Shown piece after piece: positions 1-10,532 of a stretch of 64,000 nt of DNA. This stretch comes from Vulcanococcus sp. Clear-D1. GTDB lineage: Bacteria > Cyanobacteriota > Cyanobacteriia > PCC-6307 > Cyanobiaceae. The DNA lies in contig NZ_JACVZV010000018.1 of assembly GCF_014654725.1 (NCBI RefSeq), forward strand, positions 186,001 to 250,000, in the 5' to 3' direction. The notes below the pieces were generated by a model that saw nothing but the letters and a program-made list of their open reading frames with translations, made no database searches and had not been told where the DNA came from. The stretch's first letter is position 1; every line of letters starts with the position of its first letter. The translations under genes were made by a program, and so were the position numbers.

Positions 1-139
1 CAAAGCGGTAGCGGTCCCGCCCGCCGCAGGCAGGGCAGGGCTGGTGGCGGTTGCTGAGCTGCTCGACAGGCAGTCCAGCAAGCGCCTTGAGGATTTCCTT
101 CCAGCGGCCATTGGCCGCGGTCATCACGTCGGTTGCCAT
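1..139 (-). CDS. P4-type phage/plasmid primase, N-terminal zinc ribbon (partial, runs off left edge)
   Basis: Reading the minus strand from the ATG at 139 gives 46 codons before the window ends. The peptide contains C-P-A-C-G-G followed by R-D-R-Y-R-F, the signature of the zinc-binding domain that begins P4-alpha-like phage and plasmid primases. In that family the ribbon precedes a Toprim/primase domain and often a helicase domain, and the protein primes replication of the element. Only the ribbon start is visible here, so the rest of the protein is inferred. The gene lies 15 bp downstream of the small RHH gene on the same strand and may be co-transcribed with it. Confidence 0.7.
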   Translation of the reverse strand, partial: MATDVMTAANGRWKEILKALAGLPVEQLSNRHQPCPACGGRDRYRF

Positions 140-154
140 GGGTGTCGCTACGGA

Positions 155-349
155 TCAACGACGCTCAGCGGCTGCCGCCAACACAGGCCCAGGCAGGGCA
201 AGGCCGGCCTGTTCTGCCGCGATCGCCGCGTCGATCACCTGGCGCAGCACCGCCGAGCGACTGAGGGTGCCATGCAAGCGGCGCTGGTCAAGCCAAGCCA
301 GCTGCGCCTCGGTGATGGAGACGCTCAGAGGCGGCGCAAAGGAAGCCAT
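155..349 (-). CDS. Small ribbon-helix-helix-like protein
   Basis: A 64-residue protein starting at the ATG at 349. Residues 8-14 form a short strand-like stretch (LSVSITE), followed by two predicted helices (AQLAWLDQRR and SRSAVLRQVIDAAI). This is the layout of CopG/Arc-type ribbon-helix-helix DNA-binding proteins. A longer reading frame runs upstream to 454, but its N-terminus is unlike the fold, so the internal ATG is preferred. It lies between the divergent helicase gene and the downstream primase gene, consistent with a small regulator or plasmid-type copy-control factor. The target is unknown. Confidence 0.55.
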   Translation of the reverse strand: MASFAPPLSVSITEAQLAWLDQRRLHGTLSRSAVLRQVIDAAIAAEQAGLALPGPVLAAAAERR

Positions 350-452
350 GTATGCCTGGAGTTCTGAGCACAGCCTAAGCACACCCGGCAGGGCTTGATA
401 AGTTGAACATTGCTGAGGCGTCTGACTCAGTGCAAAGCCTGTCGTCACGCCC

Positions 453-1880
453 ATGGCCCCGATCGCTCTGCGCGACTACCAGCAGCGGCTGCTGGATGAT
501 CTCCGCGCTGCCCTCAAGGTTCACCAGCGGGTTTGCGCCGTCATGCCCACCGGTGCGGGCAAGGGTCAGACCATCGGCGCGATCGTTCAGGGCGCCGCCA
601 GCAAGGGCCGGCGGGTGCTGGTGCTCGCCCACCGGGCCGAGCTGATCGAGCAGCTCACCGGCACCGTGCGGGCCTGGGGGCTGGAGCCCGATGTGATCGC
701 TCCTGGCCACATGCTGCAGGGCCAGCAGGTCGCCGTGGGCTCGGTGCAGACCGTGGCCCGGCGGCTGGGGCAGCTGCCCCAGCCGGATCTGATCATTCAG
801 GACGAGGCCCACCACCTGGTCGCCGGCAACGTCTGGGGCCGGATCATCGAGGCCTGGCCTTATGCCCACCTGATCGGCAAGACCGCTACCCCCGAACGCC
901 TTGATGGCAAGGGGTTGGGCGTGGAGGCCGGCGGCTATTTCGAGGCCCTGGTGCTGGGGCCCTCAGCGGTCTGGCTGGTCGAACAGGGCTGGCTGGCCAG
1001 GCCCAAGGTGTTCTCCTGGCCAGGGGCCAGGAACAGCAAACTGCGACGTCGCATGGGCGAGTTCGACCTGGAGGAGGCGGCACGCGCCTTCGGGGAACGG
1101 GCCGCCATTGGTGATGCGGTGTCGCACTACCGACGCCGACTGCACCCGGGCACCGCCATCTGCTTTTGCTGCACGATCGAACACGCCGAGCAGATGGCCG
1201 GAGCCTTCCGCGCTGCGGGAATCCGGGCCGCGGCGGTGAGTGGCGGCACGCCGGCCGAGGAGCGCAAACGCCTGATCGCAGGACTGGGCACTGGGGAGGT
1301 GGAGGTGCTAACCAGCTGCATGATCATTTCTGAGGGCACCGACATCCCCTCGGTGGGCGGCGCGATCCTGATGCGCCCCACCGCTTCCCTGAGCCTCTAT
1401 CTGCAGATGGTCGGCCGGGCCCTGCGTCCCGCACTTGGGAAGCAGGAAGCGGTGATCCTCGATCACGTCGGCAACGCCCATCGCCACGGCCTGCCCACCG
1501 ATGAGCGCGAGTGGAAACTGGCCGGTCGGCGCCGGCGTGAGGGTGTCTCGATCCCGATCAAGGACTGCCCCGTCTGCTTCTGCAGCTGCTCCAGCGCGAC
1601 ACAGGTCTGCCCGGACTGCGGCCATCTGTTTCTGGCCGAGGAACGCGATGAGCAGCGCCGTCGGCTCCAGCAGGTTGAGGGTGAACTGGTGGAAGTCACG
1701 GGCGCAGCCCGCCACCGGCCTAAGCCCAACCAGCAGCAACGGTCGCGGCGCACGCACCCGGCCGCAGGCTGTCGCACCTTCGAGCAGCTGCTGCAACGCG
1801 AGCAGGATCGGGGCTACAAGCCAGGCTGGGCCAGGCACGTCTGGGCAGCCAGGCAAAAAGGTGGAGGAGCGAACCTCTAA
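453..1880 (+). CDS. Superfamily 2 DEAH-type DNA helicase
   Basis: 475 residues. The Walker A motif PTGAGKG is at residues 32-38, DEAH at 117-120, the motif III equivalent TATPERLDG follows, and the motif VI stretch QMVGRALRP lies in the second RecA-like domain. Near the C-terminus are four cysteines in two C-x2-C-like pairs (CPVC and CPDC), a probable zinc finger. The arrangement matches RadD/phage-type DEAD/DEAH helicases that often accompany VRR-NUC nucleases and P4-type primases on mobile elements. It probably unwinds DNA during element replication. The gene is divergent from the RHH gene, and its 3' end overlaps the convergent secreted-protein gene by 4 bp. Confidence 0.85.
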   Translation: MAPIALRDYQQRLLDDLRAALKVHQRVCAVMPTGAGKGQTIGAIVQGAASKGRRVLVLAHRAELIEQLTGTVRAWGLEPDVIAPGHMLQGQQVAVGSVQTVARRLGQLPQPDLIIQDEAHHLVAGNVWGRIIEAWPYAHLIGKTATPERLDGKGLGVEAGGYFEALVLGPSAVWLVEQGWLARPKVFSWPGARNSKLRRRMGEFDLEEAARAFGERAAIGDAVSHYRRRLHPGTAICFCCTIEHAEQMAGAFRAAGIRAAAVSGGTPAEERKRLIAGLGTGEVEVLTSCMIISEGTDIPSVGGAILMRPTASLSLYLQMVGRALRPALGKQEAVILDHVGNAHRHGLPTDEREWKLAGRRRREGVSIPIKDCPVCFCSCSSATQVCPDCGHLFLAEERDEQRRRLQQVEGELVEVTGAARHRPKPNQQQRSRRTHPAAGCRTFEQLLQREQDRGYKPGWARHVWAARQKGGGANL

Positions 1881-2404
1881 GTGCAGCCGATTTCACCCCA
1901 GATGTAGAACGATCTACCTTGCGAGGGGTAAACGCAGCGGTCTTGCACCAGATTGGAGTCGCCGCCTACTGACCAACCCACTCCCCATTCCCACATGTAG
2001 AAGACCACACTCCCTACATCGGGGCAGGCGGAGAGGACTTGCTCTGTGTATTTCTTGGTGAGCTGTGGGCTGCTCGTGAGTGCCTGGTTTGCGTTGTGCG
2101 CCTGCTGAGTAGCCTGCAGCCCTCGCGACCACTGCGTGTTGAGGTTGAAGACGATCCGCTGCTGCTTCTCTGGTATGGGCGAGGCTGCAGCGGGACTTTC
2201 TGACGCTGGTGAATAGATCTGCACATCTTGCAGATCCCCGCCCAGCCTGTTTTCAATGTCGCTGTGTACTTGATGAATGGCATTGAGGCAGCGAGGGTCC
2301 TTGATGCTTTCGTAGGCGGAAGCTCTGCCGTTCGCAAAAGCTGATCTGCCGGCCAGGGACGCCATGGTCAAAGCAAGCGTGACAAAAGAGATGAGCGCTT
2401 TCAT
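1877..2404 (-). CDS. Secreted protein of unknown function, paralogue of its upstream neighbour
   Basis: 175 residues. The start at 2404 gives a clear signal peptide (MKALISFVTLALTMASLAG then a cleavage-like AFA). It overlaps the upstream gene's stop as ATGA, indicating translational coupling. The mature part shares with the upstream protein a central block: SSP, then L-x-ACPD-(I/V)-G, then V-x-F, a Trp and a Gly-Val. It ends in a Trp-Gly-Glu and a terminal Cys. I do not recognise a named family. Small cyanobacterial exported proteins with a similar Cys-Pro-x-Val-Gly block exist, but that link is inference. Base composition is visibly less GC-rich than its neighbours, suggesting separate acquisition. 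Confidence 0.6.
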   Translation of the reverse strand: MKALISFVTLALTMASLAGRSAFANGRASAYESIKDPRCLNAIHQVHSDIENRLGGDLQDVQIYSPASESPAAASPIPEKQQRIVFNLNTQWSRGLQATQQAHNANQALTSSPQLTKKYTEQVLSACPDVGSVVFYMWEWGVGWSVGGDSNLVQDRCVYPSQGRSFYIWGEIGCT

Positions 2405-3006
2405 GGTGAGAAGTAGTACCCCCATTCGTATTGCATGACATTCGTGCCGTCCTCTCCAGGGACTAGGCGTGTATGCGGGCCATCTCCGAGGTCTACCCAT
2501 CGAAAGGTGCGAGCCGTGCCATCAGGGAAAAAGCCAACTGGGACCCCGCCCTCATGCCAGTGATTGAAGCTCACCAGGCCAATGTCTGGACATGCTTCCA
2601 AGATCCGTGCGCCAAGAGCGGATAGGTAAACTGGAGAGGAGAGAAGGCCCTGGTAAAGCTTGCCGGAGTCCCCAGATAAATTGATGTCCAGCTGCTGCGG
2701 TCTTCCTGGAGGCGCACCGTAGTAATACTTGCGGATGGAGGTGCTATCCAGTGTGATTGTTGGATACACCATCCGCGCGATGCGAGTGCCGGCATTGGCT
2801 CGATAGGGAGAGAAGAAGCCTCTCGATCTGAGCTCGGATTGGACTGATGATTGTGCTTCTGTACAAGTCGCCGTTGTGCTCTTCAATCTGGTGAAGTGAA
2901 GTGACTGTGCGAGGGCGCTGCTACTCAAGCCCTGCAAGGTCTGCCAGGTCAGGATCAGGGCCGTCAGTGGACGGAAAAAGGTATGGCCAATCAATGGCGG
3001 GTGCAT
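2401..3006 (-). CDS. Secreted protein of unknown function, first of a tandem pair
   Basis: 201 residues from the ATG at 3006. The N-terminus is a signal peptide of about 34 residues (hydrophobic PLTALILTWQTLQGLSS, cleavage-like ALA-Q). A longer frame to 3063 lacks a good signal peptide, so the internal start is preferred. The block LLSSP, LEACPDIG, VSF, W and GV aligns with the downstream paralogue. The C-terminus ends in aromatic residues (YEWGYYF). Both genes read toward the helicase and are overlapped by 4 bp. Exported cargo of the element is the simplest reading; a role in host-surface change or competitor exclusion is speculation. Confidence 0.6.
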   Translation of the reverse strand: MHPPLIGHTFFRPLTALILTWQTLQGLSSSALAQSLHFTRLKSTTATCTEAQSSVQSELRSRGFFSPYRANAGTRIARMVYPTITLDSTSIRKYYYGAPPGRPQQLDINLSGDSGKLYQGLLSSPVYLSALGARILEACPDIGLVSFNHWHEGGVPVGFFPDGTARTFRWVDLGDGPHTRLVPGEDGTNVMQYEWGYYFSP

Positions 3007-3158
3007 TTCCTTGGTGGCTGACGATGTCCTGCTTGGCATACGTAGGTATAGGCCGGAAGTCAATTTCAGTCAGGCCTGGCTGCCGCGACTGAAGGGCGGT
3101 GTGGCCTGGTAAGGCGCTCGCCAGGGTGGTCGCTGGCCCGAGTCTGGCAACAGGAGGC

Positions 3159-3536
3159 ATGGCCTTCTCCCCCAGCGAACACGAGATCCAGCAGCGCATT
3201 CGCCTGGCCTGCGGCCGCGGGGCCGTGCGGCTCTGGCGCAACAACACCGGTGCCCTGGTCGACCAGCAGGGACGCTTCGTGCGCTTTGGGCTCTGCAAGG
3301 GCAGCAGCGACCTGATCGGCCTGCGCGCGCTGGAGATCACGCCCGAGCTGGTCGGCCAGCGGCTCGCCCAGTTCGTCGCCCTGGAGGTCAAGACAGCCCA
3401 GGGCGTGCTCAGCCCGGAGCAGCGGGCCTTCCTGCGCCTCGTGCAGGAGCTCGGAGGCGCGGCAGCGGTCTGCCGCTCCGTGGATGAAGCCGAGCAGCTG
3501 CTTGGCACCCCGAGGCAAGTACGGCTGGGACACTGA
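3159..3536 (+). CDS. VRR-NUC domain nuclease
   Basis: 125 residues from the ATG at 3159, which lies directly after AGGAGG (3152-3157). The sequence follows the VRR-NUC pattern: RLWRNNTGA, then RFGLCKGSSDLIG, then ALEVK. Asp51, Glu76 and Lys78 form the PD-(D/E)xK catalytic set. The closing stretch SPEQRAFL ... GGAAAVCRS is also typical. VRR-NUC proteins are standalone phage nucleases, or fused to helicases, and act on branched DNA. Together with the SF2 helicase and primase it suggests a replication or recombination module. The stop overlaps the next start as TGATG. Confidence 0.85.
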   Translation: MAFSPSEHEIQQRIRLACGRGAVRLWRNNTGALVDQQGRFVRFGLCKGSSDLIGLRALEITPELVGQRLAQFVALEVKTAQGVLSPEQRAFLRLVQELGGAAAVCRSVDEAEQLLGTPRQVRLGH

Positions 3537-3700
3537 TGGATCCGGCAGAACTGAAGCAGCAGCTGAGGCGTCTCACGCAGGCCCACCCGGACGAGCACCC
3601 CTACACCCTTGCTCTGAGATTGCAGGCAGAGACAGGGAAGGTGATCACTGGCCAACTTGCCAAGCAGATCCTGCAGAGGCTTGGACAGGCTCGGACCTGA
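3536..3700 (+). CDS. 54-residue protein translationally coupled to the VRR-NUC gene
   Basis: The ATG at 3536 overlaps the preceding TGA (TGATG), and the frame stays open to the TGA at 3698-3700. The peptide is MDPAELKQQLRRL at the start and ends in QILQRLGQART. It is soluble, largely helical by composition and basic at the end. The coupling to the nuclease gene is the main evidence that it is real. No family is recognised. It could be a nuclease partner or a small DNA-binding protein. Confidence 0.5.
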   Translation: MDPAELKQQLRRLTQAHPDEHPYTLALRLQAETGKVITGQLAKQILQRLGQART

Positions 3701-3705
3701 TATGC

Positions 3706-3724
3706 CAGGACGTGTCAGGACGTG
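3706..3724. repeat. Tandem direct repeat upstream of the XRE-like gene
   Basis: The 9-mer CAGGACGTG occurs twice in succession, at 3706-3714 and 3716-3724, separated by one base. It sits 24 bp before the proposed start of the XRE-like regulator gene. A tandem repeat in this place could be an operator bound by that protein, but it may be chance. Confidence 0.45.
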
Positions 3725-3747
3725 ACTAGGAGTGCCAAGTCTGCCGT

Positions 3748-4500
3748 ATGGTTCGGGAAATCCCATTCAGGATCCTGAACGTGGCCATCACCTACGCGGA
3801 GCTGCTTGAGCGCCAGGAGGAGAACCGCGCAGCGTTCGGTCGGATGCTGCTGAACTGGCGAAGAACCAACGGCTGGACCCAATACACCGCCTGCAGCTGG
3901 GCGGAAGAGGCCGGCTTCGATGCGATCTCCTACGGCAACCTCTCGGTGATCGAGCAGGGCAAGGCCGGCGAGCTGCGCCAGAAGGCCTTCTGGCAGCTGG
4001 GCGAGCTGAACCGCCGCATCGCCGACAAGGACTGGGGCCCGGTCAAGAGCCAGGCGATCAAGGAGAAGCTCGAGAACGCCATTCCCCTGGGTGACAACGA
4101 CTGCCCAACCTGGACGCCCCTGGAGCTCTGGGCCTGCTACTGCGGTCTAAGAGATGTGCCGGAAGCATTCCGCACCACCCCCGCGCCGACCGTTGGCCAG
4201 CGCAAGGCCACGGAGCTCTCGAGCAAGTGGCGCAACCAGATGCGCCGGGTTGTCGACGAATGCGGCCTCGAGCCCAGCGACGCCCTCAACTCCCTGGCGG
4301 TCGAGGCCAGCGAAGAGCATCGCAAGCGCTTCTATGCCGTGCTCACGGGCTTCGGCGACTACAAGCCGGAGGAGCTGGTCCCGTTGTGGATCGAGGGCGA
4401 CCTCTACCTGCCCAAGCGCTGGCTGGACCAGTGGGAGGCGGCCAACAGGAAGGGCGCCAAGCCCAGCGGCCGCAAAGCCAAGAAGCCAGTCAAGGCCTGA
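3748..4500 (+). CDS. XRE-like helix-turn-helix protein, likely element regulator
   Basis: 250 residues. Residues about 27-90 resemble an XRE/lambda-repressor HTH: FGRMLLNWRR, then a Trp-Thr-Gln turn, then NLSVIEQGKAGELRQKAF and LGELNRRI. The remaining 160 residues are helical and polar and end in a lysine-rich tail (KKPVKA). I do not recognise the C-terminal part. An AGGAG (3728-3732) is 15 bp from the ATG at 3748; a GTG at 3781 (V12) is an alternative start. It follows the nuclease pair after 47 bp and precedes the replication operon, so control of that operon is plausible. Confidence 0.5.
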   Translation: MVREIPFRILNVAITYAELLERQEENRAAFGRMLLNWRRTNGWTQYTACSWAEEAGFDAISYGNLSVIEQGKAGELRQKAFWQLGELNRRIADKDWGPVKSQAIKEKLENAIPLGDNDCPTWTPLELWACYCGLRDVPEAFRTTPAPTVGQRKATELSSKWRNQMRRVVDECGLEPSDALNSLAVEASEEHRKRFYAVLTGFGDYKPEELVPLWIEGDLYLPKRWLDQWEAANRKGAKPSGRKAKKPVKA

Positions 4501-4590
4501 TGGCTAGGAATTAACAGTCGCTATGAGTGCGGCTTCCAGCAAAGAGCTCTAAGATCCGGACCAGCGGGCAACCGCCCGATTCGATCCGTC

Positions 4591-5361
4591 ATGGCTTCAC
4601 CCCCCAGGCCTCCAGGGGCCGGCATTGAGGCGCCGCCGGCCGTCCTGGCCCACGCCACCCCCGAGCAACAGCTCACCCATGCCCTGGCCAGCTTTCAGGC
4701 TGAGGTGTCCCCCATTGCCGCCGCCGATCTGGCGGAGGTGATGCACTCAGCCCGCCCTGCCTTCCGCGGCGGGATCGGCTGGTCCGCCCGCCTGCGCGAG
4801 CAGCAAGGCCGCTCCAGGCTTCAAGTCACGGTGATGCACGTCGCCGGGGCCGAGCTCTACAGCGAGTCCTGGGCCGATGAGGCCAGTGATCTGGCCGAAA
4901 CCACCGGTCTGATGTTGGCCATGCTGCTGGGCATTCCTGTGTCCACTCAGGCTCGGGCTGTAGAGCCCTGTGTAGATGCAGAGGAGCAGGCGACTGGAAA
5001 GTCTGACGTGAATCCTCTGCCACAGATTTGTCCCGATCAGCGAGCCGAGGATCCGTCTCCTGAGGGGCCAGTCCCCCTGGCTGATTCCAGGGATGACGGC
5101 GCTCCTGCAGACGCTGATCCAGCTCTGGCTCCCCTCACCCCTGAGGAGGTCAGTGAGGTTCACCGCCGTGTGCTCGATCTGCCCCAGGCCACGCGCCGGG
5201 AGCTGACCACTGCGTTCCGCGAGCACTTCCAGGTGCCGCGCAATGCCCGCTCCATCGGTGATCGCATCACCCAACGGCAGCACAGCGACTTCATCGCGCT
5301 CTTCCTCGAAGAAGCGCAGGTCCAGGTGCAGGCAGAAGCTCCTGCGGAGCCAGGACCATGA
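4591..5361 (+). CDS. Element protein of unknown function; possible ssDNA-annealing role
   Basis: 256 residues. The N-terminal half (residues about 20-115) has alternating strands and helices and ends in a hydrophobic stretch LMLAMLLGIP. A variable Glu/Asp/Pro-rich linker follows (about 120-180). The C-terminal half begins LTPEEVSEVHRRVLDLP and is helical. The order 'this gene, RHH gene, ssDNA-binding protein' resembles phage recombination modules in which an ERF- or RecT-like annealing protein precedes the SSB. The sequence itself does not prove that family. The stop overlaps the next start as ATGA. The 90 bp before it have no gene. Confidence 0.4.
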   Translation: MASPPRPPGAGIEAPPAVLAHATPEQQLTHALASFQAEVSPIAAADLAEVMHSARPAFRGGIGWSARLREQQGRSRLQVTVMHVAGAELYSESWADEASDLAETTGLMLAMLLGIPVSTQARAVEPCVDAEEQATGKSDVNPLPQICPDQRAEDPSPEGPVPLADSRDDGAPADADPALAPLTPEEVSEVHRRVLDLPQATRRELTTAFREHFQVPRNARSIGDRITQRQHSDFIALFLEEAQVQVQAEAPAEPGP

Positions 5362-5603
5362 GCGAGAGCCATCGCCCACGGCCGCCACGCCGCTACGGCG
5401 AGCAGCCCCGCTCTCAGGCTGGTCGCCATTTCATCCAGACCCAGGTGCGCACCGATGTGTACCTGCGGATCCGCGAGGTGATGGAGCGCCACAACATCTC
5501 CGCCAGCGGAGCGGTGCATCACCTGCTGCGCGAGCGCTTTGGCCTGCCGCCCCTTCCTCCATTCGATCAACACCAGATTTCCACCTATTCATCCCATGGC
5601 TAA
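5358..5603 (+). CDS. Small ribbon-helix-helix-like DNA-binding protein
   Basis: 81 residues. A basic, disordered N-terminus (HRPRPPRRYGE) is followed by FIQTQVRTDVYLRIREVMERHNISASGAVHHLLRERFG, given here in pieces: strand IQTQV, helix DVYLRIREVMERH, turn NISASG, helix AVHHLLRERF. This is an RHH pattern. The ATG overlaps the previous stop (ATGA), and its own stop lies within the first codons of the SSB gene (8 bp overlap). The position in the replication operon suggests a small regulator of it. Confidence 0.55.
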   Translation: MSESHRPRPPRRYGEQPRSQAGRHFIQTQVRTDVYLRIREVMERHNISASGAVHHLLRERFGLPPLPPFDQHQISTYSSHG

Positions 5604-6180
5604 AGACATCTTCCGTACGCCCCTCGCCGAAGTGCGTTGGGCTCACCTGATCACCCCGAGGCAACAGCTCGACAAGAGCAAACCCAAGGCCTGGACTGCC
5701 GATCTCCTGCTCGCCAACAGCGACGAGAAGGCCCAGTCCTTCCTGCTGGCGATGGAGGACCAGTTCATCGCCCTGCACGGCAGCCGCAAGCGCCGCGCCG
5801 AAAAGGGCTTCCCCTGGAAGCCCGACAAGGAGAAGCCCAGCGAGATCACGGTGGTGCGCTTCAAGGTGCCGCAGTTTCAGCGGCGCGACGGCTCTCTGTC
5901 TGAGGGCCCCCGCATCGTCGATGCCAAAAAGCAGCCCTGGGATGGGGCCGCCATCGGCAACGGCTCCAAGGTGGTCGTCGCCTTCGACATCTACGACTGG
6001 GACGGGGAGAATGGCTGCGGCATGACCTTCCAGCCTCGGGCCGTTCAGGTCGTGGAGTTCGTGCCCTACGAGCAGGTCGATCCCACCGACGGGTTTGAGG
6101 AGGTCGAGGGCTACACCACAACCGGCGCTGCTGCCGGTGATTGGAGCGCCGGCGCTGCCGACGACGAGGAGCTGTTCTGA
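5596..6180 (+). CDS. Phage-type single-stranded DNA-binding protein (DUF2815-like)
   Basis: 194 residues from the ATG at 5596 (MAKDIFRTPLAEVRW). The body shows the beta-rich pattern of DUF2815/gp2.5-type phage ssDNA-binding proteins: an early block of strands around WTADLLL, a basic loop (SRKRRAEKGFPWKP), GAAIGNGSKVVVAFDIYDW and a late FQPRAVQVVEF. It ends in an acidic tip with a terminal aromatic residue (DDEELF), typical of SSB proteins that recruit partners. A longer frame starting at 5539 is less likely. It probably coats ssDNA during element replication. The stop overlaps the next start (TGATG). Confidence 0.7.
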   Translation: MAKDIFRTPLAEVRWAHLITPRQQLDKSKPKAWTADLLLANSDEKAQSFLLAMEDQFIALHGSRKRRAEKGFPWKPDKEKPSEITVVRFKVPQFQRRDGSLSEGPRIVDAKKQPWDGAAIGNGSKVVVAFDIYDWDGENGCGMTFQPRAVQVVEFVPYEQVDPTDGFEEVEGYTTTGAAAGDWSAGAADDEELF

Positions 6181-6485
6181 TGCCACTCGATCGTCAGGAC
6201 CACAACGCCGGGGCCTGGAGGGGCAGGCACCTTCAGCGGCCCGGTCCCCAGCTGCCTGCGTTCTGCCGCACCCGCCGGCCCACCGTCATGGTCACGGCCT
6301 CCAGCCTGGCCGGCCTTCGCCTGCTGGTGTTCCTGGTGCTCCTCTTTCAGCTGAGCACCCTGCTGCTGGTGCTCGCCGGGCCCGTTCCGCCGCGGCCGGT
6401 GGCCAGCACAAGCACCGTCTTCCGCCCCGTTGCCGGCATTGACGCCGGTGAGGTTCCCCCCGTCACACCGCTTTCAGACCGATGA
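6180..6485 (+). CDS. Small single-pass membrane protein in the element operon
   Basis: 101 residues from the ATG at 6180, overlapping the SSB stop as TGATG and followed by an ATGA overlap with the KilA-N gene. Residues 1-36 are polar and basic. Residues about 41-65 form one hydrophobic helix (LRLLVFLVLLFQLSTLLLVL in the core). The short C-terminal tail is Pro/Val-rich. No family is recognised. Overlaps on both sides argue that it is translated, so a membrane function sits inside an otherwise DNA-related operon. Superinfection exclusion or lysis control are possible but unproven. Confidence 0.5.
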   Translation: MPLDRQDHNAGAWRGRHLQRPGPQLPAFCRTRRPTVMVTASSLAGLRLLVFLVLLFQLSTLLLVLAGPVPPRPVASTSTVFRPVAGIDAGEVPPVTPLSDR

Positions 6486-7288
6486 ACAACGCGACGACGT
6501 CATCCCATCCAGCTGCACCTGTTGCCTCGATGAATCACCCCGCTCTGGTCTCCCGCTCCTGGAACGGCACGCCGATCTCTCGGCGCACCAGCGATGGCTA
6601 CGTGAATGCCACGGCCATGTGCAAGGCCAACGGCAAGCGGTGGAAGGACTACCGAGAGTCCGACCGGTGCCAGCTCTATCTAGACGCGCTGGAAAGCGTG
6701 GCCGGAATTTCCGTCCACGCCCTTGTTGAGTCCCGCTCAGGCGGTGCCGGTGGCGGTGGCACCTGGGTCCATCCCCAGGTCGCGGTCGATCTGGCCCGCT
6801 GGATCAGCGCGCCGTTCGCGGTGTGGATGGACAGCTGGTTCCTGGAGAGCGTCCAGCAGGCTCAACTGGCTCCTGTGGAAACACCACCACCCCGGCTCAG
6901 GGAGGCCGAGGTGATCGCCCTGGTGGAACGCAGCATCAGCCTGTTCGAGCGGCTCGGCGGCCTGGATCAACGCGACGAGCTCCTGTTCAAGGACATCGTG
7001 CGCAGCAACGTCCTGACCGCAAGCTCGGGGCTGCTGCCCGGTGCCCCGACTGACGAGGAGCTCACCCTGGGAGACGCCTGGCTGGAGGTGTTCCAGCAAG
7101 CGCTTCCGCGCAACCAGTTCTGCGCAGCCGGCCGGCTCGTGGCCAGGGCGTACCGCGAAGAGTTCGGCGAAGAGCCCCCCTGCCGCCAACAGTTTGTTGA
7201 TGGGGCCCCGCGCCAGGTCAAGAGCTACCGCCGCTCCTGGTTGATCAACACCCTCAAGCGCTGCCGCGCCCAACTGGCCGGGGGCTGA
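6482..7288 (+). CDS. KilA-N domain protein
   Basis: 268 residues. Residues about 22-115 match the KilA-N DNA-binding domain: WNGTPISRRTSDGYVNATAMCK, given here in part, then KRWKDYRES, then GGTWVHPQVAVDLARWISAPFAVWM. The C-terminal 150 residues are helical with a conserved-looking end (KSYRRSWLINTLKRCR). KilA-N proteins occur in phages, plasmids and large DNA viruses and are often regulators or anti-host factors. The start overlaps the previous stop (ATGA) and its stop overlaps the next start (TGATG), so it is in the middle of the operon. Confidence 0.8.
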   Translation: MNNATTSSHPAAPVASMNHPALVSRSWNGTPISRRTSDGYVNATAMCKANGKRWKDYRESDRCQLYLDALESVAGISVHALVESRSGGAGGGGTWVHPQVAVDLARWISAPFAVWMDSWFLESVQQAQLAPVETPPPRLREAEVIALVERSISLFERLGGLDQRDELLFKDIVRSNVLTASSGLLPGAPTDEELTLGDAWLEVFQQALPRNQFCAAGRLVARAYREEFGEEPPCRQQFVDGAPRQVKSYRRSWLINTLKRCRAQLAGG

Positions 7289-7518
7289 TGGACACGCCGA
7301 CAACGTCATCCCACCAGCGGGTCTGGGTCACGACGGCAGAAGCCTGCGCTGCCCTGGGGATGAGCCGCGAAACCCTCCGCCAGCTGCGGCTGCGAGGGGT
7401 GCTCACCCCGGGCAAGCACTACCGCCGCTGGGGCTGCACCCAGGGACGGGGGCCACTGCAGTGGCACCTGGAGAACGTGGAGGCCACCATCACCGGCTGG
7501 AGCCGGCGCCACCTGTAG
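7288..7518 (+). CDS. Excisionase-like small HTH protein
   Basis: 76 residues. Residues about 13-40 read VWVTTAEACAALGMSRETL then RQLRLRGVL, a MerR/Xis-type winged helix-turn-helix start. The basic stretch GKHYRRWG follows and could be the wing. Size and domain fit recombination directionality factors of tyrosine-integrase elements. It is the last gene of the operon and overlaps the KilA-N stop. Role as excisionase is inference; a plain transcription factor is the alternative. Confidence 0.55.
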   Translation: MDTPTTSSHQRVWVTTAEACAALGMSRETLRQLRLRGVLTPGKHYRRWGCTQGRGPLQWHLENVEATITGWSRRHL

Positions 7519-7532
7519 CTATCGAGGTCCGA

Positions 7533-7934
7533 TCAGGGAACCAGTGGCTGGCTGATCTCCTTGATCAGAGCGGCATTGAGCTTGTTCTCGCAGCCCAGCC
7601 AGACGATGGGATGGATCGAGCCCCCCTCCGCCTTCGCTGCGGCTCGCTCGCAGACCTGCCGGCGGCTGGTGCGCCATTGCTCCAGAAGGGCTGAGCTGCC
7701 CAGCAGTCGCTGCAGCGTGACGTCGTTCTGATTCCGCTGGCGCCATAGGCAGGCCACGATTTCCTGGGTGTTGCCGTCGCAGTCGGGCTGAAAGGGAAAT
7801 CGCCGCAGCTGCTGCACGGATTGGTTCAGGCTGTCGTCCGCAGCCTGGGCGGACCCTGGAATCAGCACTGCTGAGATCACCAACGGAGCGAGCAGCAGGA
7901 GGGGCACGGAGCCGGACACCATCGAACCAGGCAT
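7533..7934 (-). CDS. Secreted LprI-like (DUF1311) protein
   Basis: 133 residues from the ATG at 7934 (an ATG at 7922 is also possible). The signal peptide has a long hydrophobic core (VPLLLLAPLVISAVLI) and an AQA-A cleavage site. The mature domain follows the DUF1311/LprI pattern: Cys, TQEIVACLWRQ, L-x-LL, WRTSRRQVC, then AEGGSIHPI, then C and L near the end. LprI-type proteins include a lysozyme inhibitor in mycobacteria, but most members are uncharacterised. It reads against the operon and shares an upstream region with the toxin-antitoxin pair. It is probably cargo. Confidence 0.65.
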   Translation of the reverse strand: MPGSMVSGSVPLLLLAPLVISAVLIPGSAQAADDSLNQSVQQLRRFPFQPDCDGNTQEIVACLWRQRNQNDVTLQRLLGSSALLEQWRTSRRQVCERAAAKAEGGSIHPIVWLGCENKLNAALIKEISQPLVP

Positions 7935-7993
7935 GGACCTGAGCAGGCATAGGACGCACCAGCCCGACGCTCTTGCGGAAGCTGCGGTTGCTG

Positions 7994-8013
7994 CGATTAT
8001 TTCGATTACGATT
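7994..8013. promoter_or_regulatory. CGATT repeats in the divergent region before the toxin-antitoxin genes
   Basis: Within the 105 bp between the LprI-like gene and the antitoxin gene, CGATTA occurs at 7994-7999 and 8003-8008, and CGATT at 8009-8013. The tract is AT-rich against a GC-rich background and 27 bp before the antitoxin start. It could be a promoter with an operator for antitoxin autoregulation. No clear -35/-10 pair was identified. Confidence 0.35.
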
Positions 8014-8039
8014 CGCGTGGCCTTCCCCTCCTCCTGTCC

Positions 8040-8513
8040 ATGGCCGTCGCTCTCCCCGGCTCCATTGAGCCCGTGATCCCAACGGCTGAGGCGGCTGAGG
8101 CCGCAGGGGCGAGCTTGCGCGATCTCGCTGGCTTCCGTGCCAGCCATGGCCTACGTCAAGCCAGCCTCTCCCTCGATCTGGAGGGTGGCCAGCGCGCATC
8201 CGTTCCCATCCCGGCCGCGGTGCTGGAGTTGCTGCAGGGAATCCTGGTGCAGATGGCCCAGGGCAATGCCGTCACGCTGGTGCCGGTGCACGCCGAGCTG
8301 ACCACCCAGCAGGCCGCTGATCTGCTGAACGTCTCGCGGCCCTTCCTGATCGAGCGCCTGACGCAAGGGGAGATCCCTTTCCGCAAGGTCGGCACCCATC
8401 GGCGCATCCGCCTAGCCGACTTGATGGCCTACAAGCACGCCATCGATCAGCAGCGTGCCGCGGCCCTCGATGAGTTGGCTGCCCAGGCCCAGGAGCTGGG
8501 GATGGGCTACTGA
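8040..8513 (+). CDS. Excisionase-type HTH antitoxin of a PIN toxin pair
   Basis: 157 residues. Residues about 83-135 form an excisionase/MerR-like DNA-binding domain: ELTTQQAADLLNVSRPFLI, then EIPFRKVGTHRRIRL, then ADLMAYK. The N-terminal 80 residues have a strand-rich part (QASLSLDLEGG) and no recognised family. The gene ends 1 bp before the GTG start of the PIN gene. Two-gene modules of an excisionase-type HTH protein followed by a PIN ribonuclease are known type II toxin-antitoxin systems (VapBC50-like). It should neutralise the toxin and repress the operon. Confidence 0.7.
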   Translation: MAVALPGSIEPVIPTAEAAEAAGASLRDLAGFRASHGLRQASLSLDLEGGQRASVPIPAAVLELLQGILVQMAQGNAVTLVPVHAELTTQQAADLLNVSRPFLIERLTQGEIPFRKVGTHRRIRLADLMAYKHAIDQQRAAALDELAAQAQELGMGY

Positions 8514-8514
8514 G

Positions 8515-9084
8515 GTGAATCGCTTCACCGTCGTCTACGACGCTTGCGTTCTCTATCCGGCTCCACTCCGCGATCTGCTGATGCGCCTGGCGCTCACGGA
8601 TCTCTACCGGGCCCGCTGGAGCAACCAGATTCACGACGAGTGGATCAACGCTGTGCTGCGTAACCGGCCCGATCTCTCCAGAGCGCAGCTGGAGCGCACC
8701 CGCTCGCTGATGAATGCCCACGTGCGTGATGCGCTGGTGGATGGCCATCAGCCCCTGATTCCAGCCCTGGAATTACCAGATCCGGATGACCGCCATGTTC
8801 TGGCTGCCGCCATCAAGTGCGGAGCCGATCTGATCATCACCTTCAACCTGAATGACTTCCCGGATCACGCCCTGGCGAGCTATGGCCTTGGCGCCTGCCA
8901 TCCCGATTCGTTTCTGGTGGATCAACTGAACCTGGATGCCGAACGGGTCTGCACGGCGATGCGGCAGCACCGGGCCAGTCTGAAGAACCCACCCAAGACA
9001 GTCGAGGAGTACCTGGTAACCCTGGAGGAACAAGGGTTGAGCAGGTTCTCGGAGGCCGTGCGGCACTACGCCGCTGAGCTCTGA
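8515..9084 (+). CDS. PIN-domain toxin (VapC-like ribonuclease)
   Basis: 189 residues with a GTG start at 8515 directly after the antitoxin stop. The acidic PIN residues are visible: Asp9 (VVYDACVLY), Glu42 (IHDEW), Asp89/Asp92 (PDPDDRH) and Asp114 (FNLNDF). VapC-like PIN proteins cleave RNA, often tRNA or rRNA, when released from antitoxin. The 3' end overlaps the convergent integrase gene by 19 bp. Linkage to the integrase suggests that it helps keep the element in the chromosome. A start further upstream at 8455 would lie inside the antitoxin and is less likely. Confidence 0.8.
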   Translation: MNRFTVVYDACVLYPAPLRDLLMRLALTDLYRARWSNQIHDEWINAVLRNRPDLSRAQLERTRSLMNAHVRDALVDGHQPLIPALELPDPDDRHVLAAAIKCGADLIITFNLNDFPDHALASYGLGACHPDSFLVDQLNLDAERVCTAMRQHRASLKNPPKTVEEYLVTLEEQGLSRFSEAVRHYAAEL

Positions 9085-10334
9085 ACGCGAAGCCCCTGGC
9101 CCAGCCGTTGTTCCGCCTTGGCGAAGGCGTCATCCACCACGTCATCCCCGCACCAGCGGCTGTAGGCCGCCAGGTGGGTCTGGACGCTGTGCCCCATTGC
9201 CGCGGCCACCACCTTGGGTGGCAGGTCGCAGATCACGTGGGCCCGGTGCGCGTAGCCGTGCCGGCAGGAGTAGGGCACGAGCTTCTCGCCCTTGGCTTCG
9301 TACTCCTGCCGGAGTTTGTTCCAGAGGGTGCGTCGGTGCAGGTACTGCCTGATGTCGTTGCCGCAAAAGCCAGCACGCATCGGGGGGAGATCGTCAGGGC
9401 AGAACTGCTCGGCTAGCTTCCAGTCGACTGCCCAGTCATCGCAAGGCAGCAGCCGCAGGGCGCGAGGTTTGGTCTTACCGCGGGAGGCAACCTTTTCATA
9501 GGTGCACCACAGGCGCCCATCGCGTAACTGCAGGTGCTGGAGCTCCTCGGGGCGCAATCCATAGGCGGCCATCAGTTGGAAGGCCAGTCGCCAACGCGGG
9601 TCGGGCAAAGCCCGCACCAACGCCAGGATGTGGTCCACTTCCAGGGGGGTGGTGACCGCTTTCGCAGAGCGTGACCGCCCCACAAAGGGGCTCAGGTCGG
9701 TTGGTGGCTCCCAGCTGGCTGCCGGGAGCTGGCCCTGGGCCACCGCCCAGCGGAGCAGGGCCGAGGTGGCCTGCATCTGAATCTGCCGGGTCCGCCCACC
9801 GGGCTTGTCCGCCCAGTGCAGGGTGAGCCGATCCAGCAGCTGAGTGGCGCTTCGGGGTGGCTGACGGGTGGCGAAGGCTTCCAGAACCAGCTTCATGTGG
9901 TGCCGATGCACCCTGGTCCAGGTGGAGTCCTTGATTTCGCCGCTGCGGATTTTGTACTCGCGATAACGTTGAATCAGGGCATTCCAGTCTGTCTGCTGTT
10001 CAAGATTGGACCTTTGGGTGGCAGTGGATCCGTCATCTGATTCTTCTGTTGAAGTGAACGTGATCTTCTTTGCTGCCAGTTCGGGCTCTATTCCGCTGCT
10101 GAAATCGTCGTAGATCCTGCAAACGGCATCGCCAATCTTCTTGGCGTGGTCGAAGTGCCAGGGGATCGGAAGTTGTATCTGACGCCGCTTGCCGCCGCCC
10201 GCTTTGGCTGTGATGTTCAGCCGGGTGAGCCCTCGGTGCTCCGCCAGCGACCATCCCCTTGGACATCCCTTGCGGGACAAGGCGTGAGCCGCCTCCACGC
10301 GGATGGCGATCTCCCAGGGGGCTGCCTCAGACAT
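9066..10334 (-). CDS. int: Tyrosine recombinase (site-specific integrase)
   Basis: 422 residues. The C-terminal catalytic domain has Arg261 (AAYGLRPEEL), a likely Lys286, Arg357 in PYSCRHGY, His381 in MGHS and the nucleophile Tyr390 in HLAAYSRW. The usual first His of the HxxR box is Tyr354 here, a substitution known in some integrases. The N-terminal part and residues about 115-170 would be the arm- and core-binding domains. The gene starts 127 bp from the tRNA-Gly 3' end and reads away from it, the standard layout for tRNA-targeting islands, so it likely integrates the element into that tRNA. Its end overlaps the PIN gene. Confidence 0.92.
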   Translation of the reverse strand: MSEAAPWEIAIRVEAAHALSRKGCPRGWSLAEHRGLTRLNITAKAGGGKRRQIQLPIPWHFDHAKKIGDAVCRIYDDFSSGIEPELAAKKITFTSTEESDDGSTATQRSNLEQQTDWNALIQRYREYKIRSGEIKDSTWTRVHRHHMKLVLEAFATRQPPRSATQLLDRLTLHWADKPGGRTRQIQMQATSALLRWAVAQGQLPAASWEPPTDLSPFVGRSRSAKAVTTPLEVDHILALVRALPDPRWRLAFQLMAAYGLRPEELQHLQLRDGRLWCTYEKVASRGKTKPRALRLLPCDDWAVDWKLAEQFCPDDLPPMRAGFCGNDIRQYLHRRTLWNKLRQEYEAKGEKLVPYSCRHGYAHRAHVICDLPPKVVAAAMGHSVQTHLAAYSRWCGDDVVDDAFAKAEQRLGQGLRVQSSAA

Positions 10335-10406
10335 GTGAGAAGGTCTGTGAGAAGGTCGCCCCTACAGCCTGGCACGGCCTGTCAGGTGTGGTCAGCCGCT
10401 GGCGGC

Positions 10407-10435
10407 CCTAAAGCCAGTGCCAGACTGGCTTTAGG
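10407..10435. repeat. Perfect 12-bp inverted repeat between integrase and tRNA-Gly
   Basis: CCTAAAGCCAGT (10407-10418) and its exact complement ACTGGCTTTAGG (10424-10435) are separated by 5 bp. Neither strand has a run of T after the stem, so it is not a standard terminator. It lies 73 bp upstream of the integrase start and 26 bp from the tRNA 3' end. This is where arm sites for integrase or excisionase, or an integrase operator, are expected. Confidence 0.6.
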
Positions 10436-10460
10436 AGGGATTTCTCAGGCCTGGACTAGA

Positions 10461-10532
10461 AGCGGGTGACCGGGCTCGAACCGGCGACGTTCAGCTTGGG
10501 AAGCTGACATTCTACCACTGAATTACACCCGC
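10461..10532 (-). tRNA. tRNA-Gly (anticodon CCC)
   Basis: The minus strand folds as a 72-nt cloverleaf: acceptor GCGGGTG paired with CACCCGC, D arm ATTC/GAAT with loop AGTGGTA, anticodon stem TCAGC/GCTGA with loop TTCCCAA, and T arm GCCGG/CCGGT with loop TTCGAGC. The discriminator base is T and CCA is not encoded. The anticodon CCC corresponds to 10498-10500. The 3' end faces the integrase gene and likely contains the attachment core. Confidence 0.95.

What the first reader, a model, noticed from the sequence alone, without database searches (positions are those of the whole stretch)
4591..7518. Six-gene operon with every junction overlapping
The genes at 4591, 5358, 5596, 6180, 6482 and 7288 overlap by ATGA, 8 bp, TGATG, ATGA and TGATG junctions in turn. 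It joins a possible annealing protein, RHH, SSB, a membrane protein, KilA-N and an excisionase-like protein. Such strict coupling suggests one functional module, not random cargo, and several members have no assigned role.
Basis: partly seen in the sequence, partly recalled or inferred. Interest (0 to 1): 0.6.

Follow-up and report, generated by a model that had tools for sequence, protein, structure and literature searches.

The report
Exchangeable-slot early operon in cyanobacterial prophage
The six overlapping genes are a real, conserved gene block of a virus integrated in a freshwater cyanobacterium; related viruses keep the block and most of its gene overlaps but swap some genes for unrelated ones, including the single-stranded-DNA-binding protein.

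Summary
They lie in a 56,093-bp temperate-phage-like element in tRNA-Gly(CCC), present as two identical tandem copies in the assembly. The order ANN–RHH–SSB–TM–[slot]–xis recurs in prophages of mostly Cyanobium/Synechococcus records, so it is a module rather than random cargo. Genes inside it are exchangeable. The SSB position holds a gp2.5-like protein, another predicted OB-type protein ('SSB2') or a canonical SSB; the KilA-N position holds KilA-N or Bro-N, or is empty. The overlaps around TM persist through the swaps: an ATG on the SSB stop codon in 60 of 60 loci, and ATGA after TM in 53 of 58. In hand-picked pairs, 13 of 18 homology breakpoints lie 6–36 bp from a junction. The first gene's product ('annealing protein') is predicted to have a small Erf/Rad52-type domain, joined to a C-terminal domain shared with the phage's own Rad52-family protein. 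Most likely this is an early recombination and lysogeny-control operon, co-translated by termination–reinitiation, whose members are exchanged at the junctions. Overlaps and phage mosaicism are each common; new are this operon family, its undescribed genes, and junction retention through replacement. Biochemistry is untested; TM's role is unknown.

The parts
4591..5361 (+). ANN: 256 aa; N-terminal alpha-beta3-alpha domain (res. ~21-118) predicted Erf/Rad52-like, disordered linker, helical C-terminal domain (res. ~176-248) shared with Rad52-family proteins
   Evidence: no Pfam/PHROG/NCBIfam family
5358..5603 (+). 'RHH': 81 aa, conserved small protein; ribbon-helix-helix label unconfirmed
   Evidence: weak PHROG regulator hit E 0.31
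5596..6180 (+). SSB: gp2.5-like ssDNA-binding/annealing protein with acidic C-terminal tail ending ...DDEELF
   Evidence: PHROG_112 E 9.5e-14; 15 phage records; weak T7 gp2.5 match E 0.032
6180..6485 (+). TM: ~101 aa, one predicted transmembrane segment, conserved PQLPAFCR...AGPVP motif; function unknown
   Evidence: dN/dS below 0.64 in 12 of 13 comparisons
6482..7288 (+). Exchangeable slot: KilA-N-domain protein (Bro-N protein or nothing in relatives)
   Evidence: Pfam KilA-N E 3.1e-19; Bro-N in relatives
7288..7518 (+). xis: HTH_17/excisionase-like protein
   Evidence: Pfam HTH_17 E 6.1e-7; PHROG excisionases weak; TIGR01764 below cut-off
3748..4500 (+). conserved upstream gene u3748, 250 aa; HTH-like in a relative; 90-bp gap before ANN
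   Evidence: 56 of 69 loci; HTH_31 in L135 homologue, below cut-off
3099..3536 (+). VRR-NUC nuclease
   Evidence: Pfam E 1.4e-9
453..1880 (+). DEAD/ResIII helicase
   Evidence: Pfam E 1.8e-23; PHROG_16 E 2e-90
9066..10334 (-). tyrosine integrase
   Evidence: PHROG_1 E 2e-23; homologues in 40 of 69 related loci, 36 of them downstream on the opposite strand
10460..10505 (.). 46-bp att core at the 3' end of tRNA-Gly(CCC); also at C18:84274 and C18:140367

Best explanation
The six genes are the distal part of an early operon of a temperate cyanophage integrated in tRNA-Gly. Conserved core: an Erf/Rad52-fold accessory annealing protein (ANN), a small putative regulator (RHH), an SSB and a one-pass membrane protein (TM). 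A lysogeny-control end follows: an antirepressor-type DNA-binding protein (KilA-N or Bro-N) and an excisionase near the integrase. Inferred mechanism: one mRNA is translated by termination-reinitiation through the overlaps, linking amounts of SSB and its neighbours. ANN, with the phage's separate Rad52-family protein, loads on SSB-coated DNA through the shared C-terminal domain. I propose this domain reads the SSB's acidic tail, which would let sequence-unrelated SSBs replace one another if tail and TGATG junction are kept. Individual genes are exchanged between related prophages by crossovers at or near the junctions. Shown: anatomy, conserved order, slot replacement, retained overlaps around TM, homology breakpoints in selected pairs. 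Predicted: ANN and SSB2 folds. Inferred: one transcript, translation coupling, SSB-tail binding, who does the recombining. TM's role is open.
For: Prophage: integrase, tRNA att repeats, terminase, portal, capsid, scaffold, sigma and primase genes. Order kept in four further elements of two same-genus genomes, and ANN-RHH-SSB-TM-slot-xis in two divergent ones; across 69 TM-anchored loci window-gene homologues: ANN 56 (one, L123, at an odd distance), RHH 56, u3748 56, xis 49, int 40. SSB slot by BLAST cluster: gp2.5-like 42, SSB2 16, canonical SSB 2 of 60 (Pfam SSB E 5e-29 for L130). Antirepressor slot by cluster: KilA-N 26, Bro-N 29 of 70 loci (Pfam Bro-N in two representatives). Breakpoints (BLAST alignment ends): in 6 of 7 hand-picked KilA/Bro pairs homology ends 6-24 bp inside the slot gene, and in 5 of 7 resumes 24-36 bp inside xis; in 2 of 4 SSB-swap pairs it starts in the last 22-25 bp of the SSB gene. 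ANN model: of 35 BFVD hits with E<=1e-3, 20 are named, 18 of them ERF (best E 5e-10, unnamed); best PDB match Gp77 Z 8.6, RAD52/Mgm101 about 4-4.6. The ANN C-terminal domain recurs in Rad52-family proteins, including this element's (E 1.5e-10; Pfam Rad52 E 3.6e-42). L130 has RecT (E 2e-5) and PDDEXK genes between an ANN-like domain and RHH. Redbeta CTD binds SSB (PMC8303780, passages read).
Against: No promoter/terminator support: one sigma-70-like site, inside the SSB gene, and terminators at chance level. ANN matches no solved structure by sequence and none by Foldseek at E<=1e-3; BFVD hits have low TM-scores (0.22-0.35 by query length); Z 8.6 is little above the 7-8 that the tool calls typical without a clear match, and dsRBDs (up to 5.7) score above RAD52. 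The C-terminal domain's match to Redbeta CTD was not tested. SSB2 structural matches are weak (best Z 6.0). Some distant relatives have non-TM genes after the SSB (L084, L085, L087-L090, L152), so TM is not universal, and in distant relatives RHH|SSB does not overlap by 8 or 11. TM-anchored searches find TM by construction. A 1-bp overlap after a gp2.5 SSB also occurs outside this operon (S-SRP02, before RusA). Breakpoint pairs were chosen by eye: L065/L062 breaks inside TM; L098/L096 and L099/L068 resume near the end of the Bro-N gene, not in xis; L149/L151 and L105/L118 start 39-54 bp inside TM.
Confidence: 0.7

Rival explanations
1. Plain genome compaction: phage early genes simply overlap by the commonest lengths, and shared descent alone keeps the junctions; there is no functional module.
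For: -4, -1 and -8 are the commonest overlaps generally (PMC10666635, section read). The element has other overlapping neighbours, for example C18 89704, 94285, 94737, 125325 and 133443. S-SRP02 has the same 1-bp overlap after its SSB with another gene. RHH|SSB varies in distant relatives.
Against: Overlaps around TM persist when the flanking gene is an unrelated family: three SSB kinds, KilA-N or Bro-N, TM or non-TM followers. u3748|ANN keeps a gap, so not every junction is compacted.
Confidence: 0.2
2. The junctions are retained because they are where recombination happens (short shared sequence at gene starts and ends), not because translation is coupled.
For: In most compared pairs homology extends 6-36 bp into swapped genes and then stops. 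KilA-N and xis genes start alike: 18 of 24 nt after the ATG in the window, reached by 2 of 20,000 random 24-mer pairs. SSB tails are encoded by similar codons in three families. Rad52-like phage recombinases promote mosaicism (PMC3945230, abstract and one section read).
Against: Stop/start geometry is kept even where shared sequence is only a few bases and the next gene is unrelated. The start repeat is weaker in Bro-N loci (mean identity 0.37 against 0.49 in KilA-N loci).
Confidence: 0.3
3. ANN is not an annealing protein but a dsRBD-like or regulatory protein that borrowed a Rad52 C-terminal domain.
For: dsRBD chains score Z up to 5.7, above RAD52 at about 4. The N-domain is only about 100 aa. 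A full Rad52-family protein is encoded elsewhere in the element.
Against: The named BFVD hits with E<=1e-3 are 18 of 20 ERF. The gene lies two genes upstream of an SSB in the elements read, and beside RecT and a PDDEXK gene in L130.
Confidence: 0.3
4. The element is a satellite or other integrative element rather than a prophage.
For: Few tail genes were recognised by the PHROG scans, which covered 30 proteins of the element outside the window.
Against: Terminase large subunit (E 4e-74), major head protein (6e-54), portal (2e-18) and scaffold (4e-13) in a 56-kb unit.
Confidence: 0.06

Closest known systems
Erf / Rad52-superfamily phage single-strand annealing proteins
   Same: predicted fold of the ANN N-domain; close to an SSB gene; C-terminal domain shared with Rad52-family proteins of the same phages and hosts
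   Different: much smaller core, no sequence-profile match, and it coexists with a full Rad52-family protein in the same element
Phage recombination/replication modules with SSAP plus SSB (Red, Sak/Sak4, Erf types)
   Same: annealing protein, SSB and nuclease encoded together; member families replaced by unrelated ones in different phages (general knowledge, recalled; PMC5928155 and PMC8093625 seen only as search listings)
   Different: here replacement happens gene by gene inside one otherwise homologous operon with the stop/start overlaps around TM kept, and a lysogeny-control slot and xis are in the same chain
T7 gp2.5-type SSB of cyanophages such as S-SRP02
   Same: SSB family; 1-bp overlap with the next gene in S-SRP02
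   Different: there it follows RNA polymerase and precedes RusA; no ANN or TM match in the phage collection, and no credible RHH match
KilA-N / Bro-N phage antirepressor-type proteins
   Same: Pfam KilA-N and Bro-N domains; shuffling of the two domains among viral regulators is known (recalled)
   Different: here whole genes alternate in one slot between TM and xis neighbours

Membership tests
Temperate tailed-phage prophage | integrase plus att repeats at a tRNA | tested here: met
   46-bp repeats at C18 84274, 140367, 196460; tRNA-Gly; integrase
Temperate tailed-phage prophage | terminase, portal, major capsid genes | tested here: met
   PHROG 38, 145, 212
Temperate tailed-phage prophage | inducible virions | not testable with these tools
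   -
Erf/Rad52 single-strand annealing protein (ANN) | SSAP core fold | tested here: inconclusive
   AF2 plus Foldseek BFVD favour ERF, with low TM-scores; PDB matches modest, Z 8.6 Gp77 and about 4 RAD52
Erf/Rad52 single-strand annealing protein (ANN) | sequence-profile match to ERF/Rad52 families | tested here: not met
   no Pfam, PHROG or NCBIfam hit; only the C-terminal domain matches proteins that carry Rad52
Erf/Rad52 single-strand annealing protein (ANN) | anneals ssDNA, forms rings | not testable with these tools
   -
gp2.5-like SSB | profile match and acidic tail | tested here: met
   PHROG_112 E 9.5e-14; tail ...DDEELF
KilA-N protein | Pfam KilA-N domain above cut-off | tested here: met
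   69.2 bits against 23.8
Excisionase | excisionase-family profile above cut-off | tested here: inconclusive
   HTH_17 above cut-off; TIGR01764 17.7 against 28.8 bits
Ribbon-helix-helix regulator (5358 product) | RHH profile or fold | tested here: inconclusive
   no profile match; fold not predicted
SSB (relatives' 'SSB2') | OB fold and acidic tail ending in F | tested here: inconclusive
   pLDDT 83; OB-type matches Z 4-6 only; tail present

The most novel reading that the evidence does not exclude
The SSB tail is a three-way connector: its acidic residues are the only SSB feature that ANN and the phage Rad52 need (via their shared C-terminal domain), its codons and stop form the reinitiation site for the next gene, and the same few bases serve as a crossover point. 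That would make SSB a plug-in cassette, and the operon a self-shuffling set of slots whose own annealing proteins drive the exchange.
Probability: 0.2. Interest if true: 0.75.

Novelty: new variant of a known kind. Interest (0 to 1): 0.47.

Why it matters
It gives a natural series in which one position of a conserved phage operon is filled by three sequence-unrelated SSB-type genes and another by two antirepressor families, with breakpoints often within a few tens of bases of the gene borders and retained stop/start geometry. That makes two open questions testable: what really constrains the compatibility of SSBs with annealing proteins, and how phage mosaics form at gene borders. It also names three conserved families without a known profile (ANN, the 81-aa gene, TM) in picocyanobacterial prophages.

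Tried and rejected
ANN, TM and the 81-aa gene were searched in 50,697 phage records: no match for ANN at E 0.01, none for TM at E 1, one chance-level hit for the 81-aa gene (E 0.6). KilA-N, by contrast, gave 91 records. SSB2: no phage record at E 0.1.

Considered and rejected: that ANN is replaced by RecT where the canonical SSB is present. In L130 an ANN-like N-domain of 111 aa (my reading by eye, no profile hit) remains upstream of the PDDEXK and RecT genes. L142 was not read gene by gene.

Considered and rejected: that TGATG after the SSB reflects TM alone. Non-TM genes also start there.

Promoter and terminator scan gave nothing usable. PDB sequence searches found no ANN relative. The VIA lists do not exclude families that are absent from them. 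Redbeta CTD was not in the list; that is no evidence either way. RAZR plus Gp77 gave no paper, nor did my four-term cyanobacterial prophage query. I found no paper describing this operon in the listings, but only the ten searches were made. Papers read: PMC10666635 (outline/abstract and one section), PMC3945230 (outline/abstract and one section), PMC8303780 (passages by term); all others were seen only as listings.

Rows dropped: of 70 TM loci (the window included), 10 had no SSB assigned: L093, L097, L103, L109, L115, L121, L123, L131, L132, L143. Several are cut by a contig end; for the others I did not establish why. Of 58 loci with a downstream ORF, 5 were not ATGA: L095 and L122 have TM ORFs of abnormal length (174 and 116 aa), L132 is unexplained, and in L135 and L137 the script picked a wrong frame; direct reading shows xis starting with ATGA on the TM stop. 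In one search, L069 and L074 were truncated and L086 had no SSB. In one search, four of the 40 int hits (L103, L112, L130, L143) are on the other strand or upstream and may be other recombinases. In the divergent element G006:C2 the Bro-N and AlpA-like genes are 50 bp apart. Of 14 pairs compared, 7 were KilA/Bro and 4 SSB swaps; L145/L149, L105/L141 and L135/L141 had the same SSB kind and were not counted.

Full report
1. What is there. The six ORFs and five overlaps are exactly as described. The window is C18:186001-250000 of a 2.96-Mb, 39-contig genome. Self-comparison of the contig shows two 100%-identical tandem units of 56,093 bp, bounded by a 46-bp core at C18 84274, 140367 and 196460; the last is window 10460-10505, the 3' end of tRNA-Gly(CCC). 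The window holds the right end of the second unit. Each unit carries terminase, portal, major head protein, scaffold, a sigma factor, primase-helicase, a weakly exonuclease-like gene, a Gp157/Gam-like gene, a Rad52-family gene and an integrase, so it is prophage-like.

2. Members. Profiles give KilA-N (6482), HTH_17/excisionase-like (7288) and gp2.5-like SSB (5596); 4591, 5358 and 6180 match no family above cut-off. In comparisons with up to 13 chosen relatives the five tested genes are mostly under purifying selection: dN/dS 0.06-0.21 for SSB, 0.09-0.25 for KilA-N (9 relatives), 0.04-0.39 for the 81-aa gene, 0.27-0.59 for ANN, and 0.39-0.63 for TM except one value of 1.25.

3. Conservation. 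Among 60 genomes (the window's own included) the SSB was found in 4 and ANN-related sequence in 14, all in one genus. Four full elements in two other genomes repeat the order helicase, VRR-NUC, u3748, ANN, RHH, SSB, TM, slot, xis. Two divergent ones (G006:C2, G014:C38) keep ANN-RHH-SSB-TM-slot-xis with other families in three slots: SSB2, Bro-N and AlpA-like; helicase and VRR-NUC were not found in the stretches held. TM-anchored searches gave 10 viral and 59 genomic loci. In those 69, window-gene homologues were found for ANN in 56 (L123 at an odd distance), RHH 56, u3748 56, SSB of the gp2.5 type 48, KilA-N 26, xis 49 and int 40, of which 36 downstream on the opposite strand. Several of these loci are the same elements as in the genome search (judged from equal contig lengths) or near-duplicates.

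4. Slots. SSB slot, 60 loci, by BLAST cluster: gp2.5-like 42, SSB2 16, canonical SSB 2 (Pfam SSB for L130). SSB2 is modelled at pLDDT 83 with weak OB-type matches and an acidic tail ending in F. Downstream slot, 70 loci, by cluster: KilA-N 26, Bro-N 29, other or unassigned 15 (Pfam Bro-N in two representatives). Combinations mix: gp2.5 with KilA-N 20, gp2.5 with Bro-N 17, SSB2 with Bro-N 7, SSB2 with KilA-N 1, canonical SSB with Bro-N 2. In L081, L135, L137 and L153 an xis-type gene follows TM directly (read by eye).

5. Junctions and swaps. SSB|TM is TGATG in 60 of 60; TM|slot is ATGA in 53 of 58; slot|xis is TGATG in 26 of 26 KilA-N and 20 of 28 Bro-N loci; RHH|SSB is 8 (35) or 11 (10) bp and ANN|RHH is 4 in the 45 loci where the script found RHH. 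The script favoured starts giving these overlaps. With SSBs located by homology instead, 19 of 19 ANN-anchored and 7 of 7 SSB2-anchored loci have an ATG on the SSB stop, including loci where that ORF is not TM-like. Against a general rule: RHH|SSB is a gap of 2-7 bp or a 1- or 4-bp overlap in distant relatives, and the gp2.5 gene of phage S-SRP02 has the same 1-bp overlap with RusA, while AP013546 has a gap. So the SSB|next overlap is the sturdiest feature and may belong to the SSB rather than to this operon.

6. Breakpoints. In seven KilA-N/Bro-N pairs chosen by eye, the flanking nucleotide homology (86-94%) ends 6-24 bp inside the slot gene in six (in L065/L062 inside TM), and resumes 24-36 bp inside xis in five; the other two (L098/L096, L099/L068) resume near the end of the partner's Bro-N gene, and L098 and L099 have xis displaced by about 0.4 kb. 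In four SSB-swap pairs, L149 (gp2.5) against L142 (canonical), and L142 against L151 (SSB2), share homology only from the last 22-25 bp of the SSB gene onward; L149 against L151, and L105 (SSB2) against L118 (gp2.5), start 39-54 bp inside TM. Altogether 13 of 18 breakpoints lie 6-36 bp from a junction; BLAST alignment ends are approximate. The SSB tail codons and stop read ...TTCTGATG in nearly all loci; in the window AGGAG lies 8 nt before the TM start, so tail codons could also serve as a ribosome-binding site (inference).

7. ANN. AlphaFold2 on 25 sequences gives two confident domains, residues about 21-118 and 176-248, with a disordered linker. In BFVD, 35 hits have E<=1e-3; 20 carry names, of which 18 are ERF/essential recombination function, one a putative recombination protein and one uncharacterised; TM-scores are low (0.22-0.35 by query length), as expected for a two-domain model with a loose linker. 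In PDB no Foldseek hit passes 1e-3; the VIA list gives Gp77 of the RAZR complex Z 8.6 over 99 residues, dsRBDs up to 5.7, and Mgm101 and RAD52 about 4-4.6. The C-terminal domain matches the ends of proteins which, read by eye, have Rad52-like motifs, including this element's own Rad52-family protein (Pfam Rad52). So 'annealing protein' is a reasonable structural reading, not a demonstrated one.

8. Mechanism. Overlaps of these lengths are the setting for termination–reinitiation (PMC10666635: abstract and one section read). Redbeta's C-terminal domain binds SSB and this is needed in vivo (PMC8303780: passages read). Rad52-like phage recombinases drive mosaicism between diverged sequences (PMC3945230: abstract and one section read). 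Together with sections 4-6 these suggest a co-translated early operon whose SSB is interchangeable because partners read its tail, and whose genes are exchanged at the junctions. Each of these inferences is untested here, and the junctions could be kept for one reason (translation) or the other (recombination).

9. Limits. Loci are not independent; TM-anchored sets contain TM by construction; starts were chosen by rule; breakpoint pairs were selected by eye; no expression data exist here. The function of TM and of the 81-aa gene is unknown; N-in topology for TM is my inference from arginines before the segment.

10. Verdict. Observation confirmed. Interpretation partly supported: a module, but with exchangeable members. 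New variant of a known kind (phage recombination/early operon).

Noticed in passing
G000:C18 84274-196505 (window 1-10505 is the right end): Two 100%-identical tandem copies of the 56,093-bp element sharing a central att core; either a real tandem lysogen or an assembly effect of a circular form.
   Followed up: partly
G000:C18 91187-104012 (outside the window): Defence-like island in the prophage: proteins matching PADLOC HmaC, HmaB, PLD-helicase (also HmaA) and PifA models.
   Followed up: partly
window 8040-9084: HTH_17 gene followed by a PIN-domain gene (Pfam E 2.7e-12 and 5e-10), toxin-antitoxin-like, between xis and int; homologues in 5 and 9 of 69 related loci.
   Followed up: partly
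window 6482-6508 and 7288-7314: The starts of the KilA-N and xis genes are alike (18 of 24 nt after the ATG); a possible short repeat bracketing the slot.
   Followed up: partly
L145 8303-9112 and downstream: A Bro-N gene and a KilA-N homologue both lie between TM and xis, as if the slot held two genes.
   Followed up: no
L083-L085, L087, L089, L090, L152, L154: Distant viral contigs keep ANN-RHH-SSB but continue with genes that read as sigma-70-like instead of the lysogeny end (Pfam only for L090); most have an extra small gene between ANN and RHH.
   Followed up: partly
L130 4646-7414: DUF3799 PDDEXK and RecT genes inserted between an ANN-like domain and the RHH gene, in an element with a canonical SSB.
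   Followed up: partly
L158 5010-6046 (phage S-SRP02): The annotated gp2.5-type SSB gene overlaps the next gene (RusA) by one base, and a KilA-N gene lies next to the integrase about 4 kb upstream.
   Followed up: no
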